Below, one piece after another: positions 52,993-54,169 of a DNA stretch of 64,000 nt. The stretch comes from Terrimicrobiaceae bacterium (lineage in GTDB: Bacteria > Verrucomicrobiota > Verrucomicrobiia > Chthoniobacterales > Terrimicrobiaceae): assembly GCA_018402345.1 (NCBI GenBank), contig JAGYIV010000007.1, positions 62,001 through 126,000 of the forward strand. The letters run 5' to 3'. Below the pieces are notes generated by a model, which saw nothing but the letters and a program-made list of their open reading frames with translations, ran no database searches and had not been told where the DNA came from. The translations under genes were made by a program, and so were the position numbers. Position 1 is the stretch's first letter; each line of letters starts with the position of its first letter.

Positions 52993-54169
52993 TCACTCAA
53001 GCAACCGGAGCACACTTCGCGAGTCGACACGCTGCATCGCAAGCAACGCCGACCCCGCCTCAATGAAAACTTTCGTCTTGGCCAAATCAGCACTCGCCCG
53101 CGCAATATCCGTGTCCTGAATCACGCTCAACGCAGCCTCCCGATTTTGCTTGTTCGTGGAGTTCATCGCCGAAGCGATCTGGAGTTGGTTTTTCTCGGCA
53201 CCGTTGATGGCGCGAGCTTGGGCGATGTTTTGGAGGGATACGAGAAGATCAGAATGTTCGACATCCTTTATACTGATCGGGGACCTCTCAAAAATGTAGC
53301 CGTAAGCCAAACCACTTGAGTTATGAGTATCAAGCCAGGATGCCAAACCAGGCGGAGCATAAACATAATCAGTAAACCAACTTAGGTTGTCATCGTTGAA
53401 TGGATTCCAAAACTCAAAATCCCACGGCGTTCCATCAACCCATTCGAATGTCCCTTCGACTCTTTCATCAGTTCCCCCAAGCCAGGTCCAACCCTTTGTT
53501 GCACCAGCAACCAAAGGCTTGATTAAATCCCACTCCTCTTGGGATCCTACTGTTGCCAAGTGCCCTCCTCTGGACTCGGCATCAGATTTGGCTTGTTGCC
53601 AAGTGTATTTTCTATCGTCAATCAATTCATATTCCGATTCACCCGCGACATTTAACACATCACCCACAAAAAGATTTTCAGATATAGGCCTGTTGATTTG
53701 TAAATCGGAACCTGTCTCTCCCATAGCAATTGATAGTGGTTCCTCACCAGACGATGGACTGAATAGGACGGTGCCATTGAACGATTCAGCCTTGAGCACC
53801 TCCAAATGCTCCTGCAACGCCACATATTCTGTCTGATAAAGCGCGACATCGTCGCTCGACTTCGTGACATCATCCGAGAGTGTCTTGAGTTCGGCCATCA
53901 CGCTCCAACGCCTGCCCCATTTTTGCAAGCACCCCATCCTGCACCTGCAAAAAGGAGATCGCGTTTTGAATGTTTTTTTCAAACGCCTCCGCAGAGCGGA
54001 TCGAGACGGACATTTTCGTTGCCATCGATAAGCCCGACGGATCGTCCTTTGCAGAATTGATGCGTTTCCCAGAGGAAATCCTCTCCAGCGTCTGGGCGTG
54101 GCGATTCAGGGACAACCTCAAGTTGTCCGCAACCACACTTGCCGCGACCATGCTGCTTCCAACAATCAT
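52993..54169 (-). CDS. Flagellin with an inserted C-type-lectin-like domain (one frameshift)
   Basis: 391 residues after removing one base at about 53899-53902; before it the frame from 54169 ends falsely after 'MGQALERDGRTQ', and the adjacent frame continues 'MAELKTLSDDVTKSS'. Residues 1-130 are flagellin D0/D1 ('LERISSGKRINSAKDDPSG') and residues about 300-391 are the C-terminal D1/D0 ('DTDIARASADLAKTKVF', 'AGSALLAMQ'). Between them, at about residues 178-295, is a C-type-lectin-like domain: 'YTWQQAKSDAESRGGHLATV', 'TWLGGTDERVEGTFEWVDG', 'FWNPFNDDNLSWF' and 'GYIFE'. It has no cysteines, as in many bacterial lectin folds. Exposed on the filament, the domain could bind sugars. No other flagellar gene is in the window. 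Confidence 0.85.

What the first reader, a model, noticed from the sequence alone, without database searches (positions are those of the whole stretch)
52993..54169. Flagellin carrying a C-type-lectin-like domain in its variable region
D0/D1 segments at both ends are those of an ordinary flagellin, but the surface-exposed middle holds a stretch with the core C-type-lectin motifs: W-x-x-A, GGHLATV, a WLGG-type strand, EWVDG and a closing GYIFE. A sugar-binding filament would suit a glycan-degrading bacterium, perhaps for adhesion to polysaccharide particles. Flagellin hypervariable-region insertions with other activities are known (for example metalloprotease flagellins); I do not know of a described lectin version. 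One frameshift near 53900 interrupts the gene.
Basis: partly seen in the sequence, partly recalled or inferred. Interest (0 to 1): 0.88.

Follow-up and report, generated by a model that had tools for sequence, protein, structure and literature searches.

The report
Flagellins carrying C-type lectin domains
A bacterium of the Verrucomicrobiota has a flagellin gene whose outward-facing part is a C-type lectin fold like that of animal mannose-binding proteins, and the same design recurs in seven related species, which hints at flagella that can grip sugars or other ligands, although no binding has been shown and this copy has lost most of the usual sugar-binding residues.

Summary
The minus strand at 54169-52993 encodes a flagellin (Flagellin_N E 6e-16, Flagellin_C E 6e-7) with a C-type lectin domain (Lectin_C E 2e-9) in its variable region, broken by one frameshift near 53900. 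The model of the read-through protein (pLDDT 82.6) matches flagellar filaments and C-type lectins (Z 18.1 to CL-K1). The architecture recurs: ten further genes in seven other genomes of two orders, eight of them complete; four have two tandem lectin-type regions. Insertion points differ between the orders, so the fusion probably arose at least twice. Other genes of this assembly are frame-broken too, so an assembly error is likely. Sugar binding is only partly supported: Ca2+ site 2 is complete in two relatives (EPN/E/WND and QPD/E/WND), but both of those genes are incomplete in hand, and the site is degraded in the window protein (NDD/D/WLD). Most likely these are filament subunits that display a lectin-fold binder, with ligand and Ca2+ dependence varying. 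I found no description of lectin flagellins in the papers I could search. New variant of a known kind: flagellins with a functional domain in the variable region.

The parts
53900..54151 (-). Flagellin_N (D0/D1 N-terminal helices), first part; the ORF runs 54169-53870 with ATG at 54169
   Evidence: Pfam PF00669 E 6.2e-16; ORF list
53898..53906 (-). Frameshift: one surplus base near CGTGATG; the upstream frame ends at 53870, the downstream frame is open from 53904 to 52993
   Evidence: frame comparison; complete relatives have no such break
53659..53790 (-). End of N-terminal D1 (FNGTVLF) and the segment of about 40 residues that precedes the lectin domain
   Evidence: alignment with relatives and plain flagellins; boundaries approximate
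53272..53658 (-). C-type lectin domain (residues 171-299 of the read-through protein) in the surface-exposed variable region
   Evidence: PF00059 E 2.3e-9 at 53610-53392; model and fold comparison, Z 18.1, rmsd 2.0, 120 aligned
52999..53235 (-). Flagellin_C (D1/D0 C-terminal helices); stop codon at 52995-52993
   Evidence: PF00700 E 6.1e-7

Best explanation
The gene encodes a flagellin paralogue that is exported by the flagellar secretion system and built into the filament (or one of several filament types) through its D0/D1 helices, so that a C-type lectin fold is displayed in many copies on the filament surface. In the wider group the domain most likely binds glycans in some members (mannose/GlcNAc type with EPN, galactose/GalNAc type with QPD) and makes the flagellum adhesive for polysaccharides or other cells. 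In this copy the Ca2+ site is degraded, so it probably binds something without Ca2+ or is losing its ligand. Shown: architecture, fold, recurrence, motif status. Inferred: export, filament assembly, binding, adhesion. The frameshift is more likely an assembly error than true loss; this is not settled.
For: Flagellin_N and Flagellin_C flank Lectin_C in this gene. Model pLDDT 82.6; CTLD Z 18.1 to 4yli, flagellin Z 17.1 to 9n59 (rmsd 2.2, 182 aligned). Lectin flagellins: G015, G005 (C-terminal half at a contig end), G125 x2, G073 x3, G078 in the same order; G435, G848 in another order. G848 aligns to SP-D and MBP with GEPNDAGG and WND kept; G005 has QPDN, GED, WND. Against G005 the flagellin part keeps 70 of 93 residues with codon-position changes 17/11/43, a sign of purifying selection; the ligand-loop half of the CTLD keeps 19 of 56 with 31/28/36, so it diverges fast.
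Against: Ca2+ site 2 is degraded in the window protein, G015, G125 x2 and G435, so sugar binding is not general. The two genes with a complete site are both incomplete in hand: G005 is cut by a contig end and G848 lacks about the first 18 residues of D0 in frame. No expression, export or binding data. The gene stands alone between thiE and a fur-like gene. The window copy is frameshifted. The architecture is patchy: 6 of 213 genomes in the order.
Confidence: 0.55

Rival explanations
1. The CTLD is only a structural outer domain: a stable bulky fold in the D2/D3 place that tunes filament stiffness, surface charge or escape from phage and grazers, without specific ligand binding.
For: Ca2+-site residues are degraded in at least five of the proteins; flagellin variable regions differ hugely without known function (PMC7018530); fast change in the ligand-loop half.
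Against: Complete EPN and QPD sites in G848 and G005; QPD or EPD, a following E or N and W-[AS]-D kept in the second lectin-type regions of the intact G073 and G078 proteins.
Confidence: 0.28
2. The window gene itself is a pseudogene: the frameshift is real and the locus is decaying.
For: Frameshift near 53900; degraded Ca2+ site; six of eight flagellins in the C2 cluster are also frame-broken.
Against: Genes expected to be intact in the same assembly are broken too (a PBP1A-like gene in L010, a HldE-like gene in L014), which fits indel errors of the assembly; about 300 codons downstream stay open; third-position bias of changes in the flagellin part.
Confidence: 0.3
3. The protein is a cell-surface or secreted flagellin-like adhesin rather than a filament subunit, as proposed for the alginate-binding flagellin homologue P5 of Sphingomonas sp. 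A1.
For: P5 precedent (PMC8286568); the gene is remote from other flagellar genes.
Against: Full-length D0/D1 helices at both ends in the model; the G015 copy sits in a cluster with ordinary flagellins.
Confidence: 0.12

Closest known systems
Flagellinolysin (proteolytic flagellin; Eckhard et al. 2017, PMC5595980)
   Same: A foreign functional domain inserted in the flagellin variable region, flanked by normal D0/D1; patchy distribution; domain displayed on the filament surface
   Different: A metallopeptidase shown to be active; here a non-enzymatic lectin fold, untested. That survey found 61 domain types; its main-text top ten do not include a C-type lectin, and its supplement could not be read here
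Alginate-binding cell-surface flagellin P5 of Sphingomonas sp. A1 (reviewed in PMC8286568; 'bacterial cell-surface flagellin' structures 3k8v, 3k8w appear)
   Same: A flagellin homologue proposed to bind a polysaccharide
   Different: No C-type lectin domain is reported there
C-type lectin domains of collectins (CL-K1, SP-D, MBP)
   Same: Fold (Z about 17-18); EPN/E/WND kept in the G848 relative
   Different: No cysteines for the usual disulfides; the window copy lacks the sugar/Ca2+ motifs; the scaffold is a flagellin instead of a collagen stalk
Secreted or giant Verrucomicrobiota proteins with CTLDs (e.g. G003, L098, L105)
   Same: Sequence-related domains and possible donors
   Different: Not flagellins

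Membership tests
Bacterial flagellin | N-terminal D0/D1 helical region (PF00669) | tested here: met
   E 6.2e-16, residues 7-90
Bacterial flagellin | C-terminal D1/D0 helical region (PF00700) | tested here: met
   E 6.1e-7
Bacterial flagellin | Export and assembly into filaments | not testable with these tools
   needs filament proteomics or imaging
C-type lectin-like domain (fold) | CTLD fold and Lectin_C profile match | tested here: met
   PF00059 E 2.3e-9; Z 18.1, rmsd 2.0 over 120 residues
Ca2+-dependent sugar-binding C-type lectin | EPN or QPD motif in the long loop | tested here: not met
   NDD in the window protein; EPN in G848, QPD in G005
Ca2+-dependent sugar-binding C-type lectin | WND motif | tested here: not met
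   WLD in the window protein; WND in G848 and G005
Ca2+-dependent sugar-binding C-type lectin | Binding of a sugar | not testable with these tools
   needs a binding assay
Diversity-generating retroelement target with a CTLD | Reverse transcriptase and template repeat nearby | tested here: inconclusive
   the one RVT_1 match of the genome is on contig C4, not on the window's contig; template repeats were not searched

The most novel reading that the evidence does not exclude
Several lineages of Verrucomicrobiota build lectin-decorated flagella: filaments with thousands of regularly spaced Ca2+-dependent sugar-binding domains, in EPN (mannose-type) and QPD (galactose-type) versions and with one or two lectin domains per subunit, evolved at least twice by inserting a CTLD at different points of the variable region, and used to catch polysaccharide particles or other cells.
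Probability: 0.35. Interest if true: 0.8.

Novelty: new variant of a known kind. Interest (0 to 1): 0.6.

Why it matters
A flagellum that is also a multivalent lectin would join motility and glycan adhesion in one organelle and give a natural scaffold for dense display of carbohydrate-binding domains. Relatives with complete EPN and QPD sites make the idea directly testable with recombinant domains of about 130 residues. It also widens the list of functional flagellins beyond proteases.

Tried and rejected
Close relatives of the whole C-terminal frame among GTDB r220 contigs: none. Diversity-generating retroelement: no reverse transcriptase on the window's contig; not pursued. Phase variation by slipped strand: the frameshift is not in a repeat or homopolymer run. 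Single origin of all lectin flagellins: the best trees scatter them among plain flagellins and free CTLDs, but the AU test does not reject one clade (p 0.14 for the flagellin core, 0.21 for the CTLD); the case for at least two insertions rests on the insertion points. Structure of a two-lectin protein: pLDDT 62, lectin regions mostly unresolved, inconclusive. Lectin flagellins in the phylum sample outside the class: none found, but only fetched loci were checked for flagellin flanks, so other insertion sites could be missed. PDB match for the C-terminal lectin half of G005: none at E 0.01, probably too short. Literature on lectin flagellins: none; the survey of flagellar outer domains (Fields et al. 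2024) is not held.

Full report
What is there. The minus strand at 54169-52993 holds a flagellin gene in two frames. The first, 54169-53870, is Flagellin_N (E 6.2e-16); the second, open from 53904 to 52993, is Lectin_C (E 2.3e-9) and then Flagellin_C (E 6.1e-7). The frames meet at one surplus base near CGTGATG at about 53900. The read-through product is 391 residues. For alignment and folding one four-letter word was read as one residue, which alters two residues at the junction and nothing in the lectin domain.

Fold. AlphaFold2 with an 18-row alignment gave pLDDT 82.6 and pTM 0.67. Foldseek against the PDB returned flagellar filaments first, and C-type lectin domains (2ox9 TM 0.75 and 4gi0 TM 0.74 by target length). 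VIA-align gave Z 18.1 (rmsd 2.0, 120 aligned) to collectin CL-K1 (4yli), about 17 to MBP, SP-D, CD23 and mannose receptor, and Z 17.1 (rmsd 2.2, 182 aligned) to the Azotobacter flagellar filament (9n59). The lectin domain is residues 171-299, i.e. window 53658-53272.

The genome. The assembly has 3.14 Mb in 17 contigs. It holds 14 flagellins and a FlgL-like gene and only one Lectin_C match, this one. The gene lies between thiE and a fur-like gene, away from other flagellar genes.

Recurrence. Lectin_C and profile searches of the order found further lectin flagellins. Same genus: G015 (431 aa, complete, in a cluster with ordinary flagellins and next to a TPR glycosyltransferase-like gene) and G005 (C-terminal half, cut by a contig end). 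Another family: G125 (two genes), G073 (three genes), G078 (one gene). The G073 and G078 proteins hold two tandem lectin-type regions; Pfam reports at most the first, and none in G078, so the second regions rest on alignment. A second order of the class has G435 (384 aa, complete) and G848 (370 aa, lacking about the first 18 residues of D0 in frame). In all, ten further genes in seven other genomes, eight of them complete. Samples of 384 genomes of the class and 388 of the phylum gave no more among the loci examined.

Origin. Plain flagellins of the G435/G848 family read FNGVSLFGSTGLAITIDSDAATF; in G435 the lectin domain stands between FNGKQLF and the stretch LSLVVNGDGQ, whereas in the window protein the matching stretch (PLSIAMGETGSDLQI) comes before the lectin domain. 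The insertion points differ, which argues for at least two events. Trees point the same way but do not reject a single clade (AU p 0.14 and 0.21).

Does it bind sugar? Ca2+ site 2 of C-type lectins needs EPN or QPD, a following acidic residue, and WND (established knowledge of the family). G848 has EPN, GED, WND and aligns with SP-D and MBP over them. G005, the closest homologue of the window protein, has QPD, GED, WND. The second regions of G073 and G078 keep QPD or EPD and W-[AS]-D. The window protein has NDD, D, WLD; G015, G125 and G435 are also degraded. So the group likely contains sugar-binding members, and this copy is likely not a Ca2+-dependent sugar binder. A caveat: the two genes with complete sites are both incomplete in hand. 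Against G005 the flagellin part is conserved (70 of 93 residues; codon-position changes 17/11/43), whereas the ligand-loop half of the lectin domain is not (19 of 56; 31/28/36). That is change of ligand or loss of constraint; these data do not separate the two.

The frameshift. Six of the eight flagellins of the C2 cluster are frame-broken too, and so are genes expected to be intact: a penicillin-binding protein (L010) and a HldE-like gene (L014). With a long open frame downstream and third-position bias of changes in the flagellin part, an assembly error is the likelier cause. Reads would settle it.

Literature. Flagellins with inserted functional domains are known (flagellinolysins, PMC5595980), and the variable region is known to be extremely diverse (PMC7018530). 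A flagellin homologue is reported as an alginate binder (PMC8286568). Searches for lectin-bearing flagellins found none. The supplement of PMC5595980, which lists 61 domains, and the 2024 outer-domain survey could not be read, so novelty is provisional.

Verdict. Real and recurrent architecture; new variant of a known kind; sugar binding plausible for part of the group, unproven, and doubtful for this copy.

Noticed in passing
L203:445-2028 (G878:C27) and L195:2-964 (G848:C426): Flagellins with an inserted metalloprotease-like domain bearing HELGHVLGIGTLW / HEIGHVLGIGSLW, apparently a metzincin-like type rather than the gluzincin flagellinolysin type.
   Followed up: partly
L010 (G000:C2:155000-174500): Cluster of eight flagellins, six with frameshifts, and a transposase-like gene (IS630-like by eye) at L010:6931-8127 inside the cluster.
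   Followed up: partly
L012:3947-5398 and L013:5174-6970 (own genome): Long flagellins (484 and about 600 aa) whose variable regions match no Pfam domain.
   Followed up: partly
L082:2559-3851 (G015): The lectin flagellin of G015 has a tail of about 40 residues beyond the usual flagellin C-terminus (MLRLLY).
   Followed up: no
L113 and L120: In two related genomes a gene with a C-type lectin domain lies within about 4 kb of an unusual flagellin gene (MNSVLSYTSSVVRN... / MNSVVSYINSSVRN...).
   Followed up: no
L010:1-420 and L014:1700-2600: PBP1A-like and HldE-like genes are broken by frameshifts, pointing to indel errors in this assembly.
   Followed up: partly
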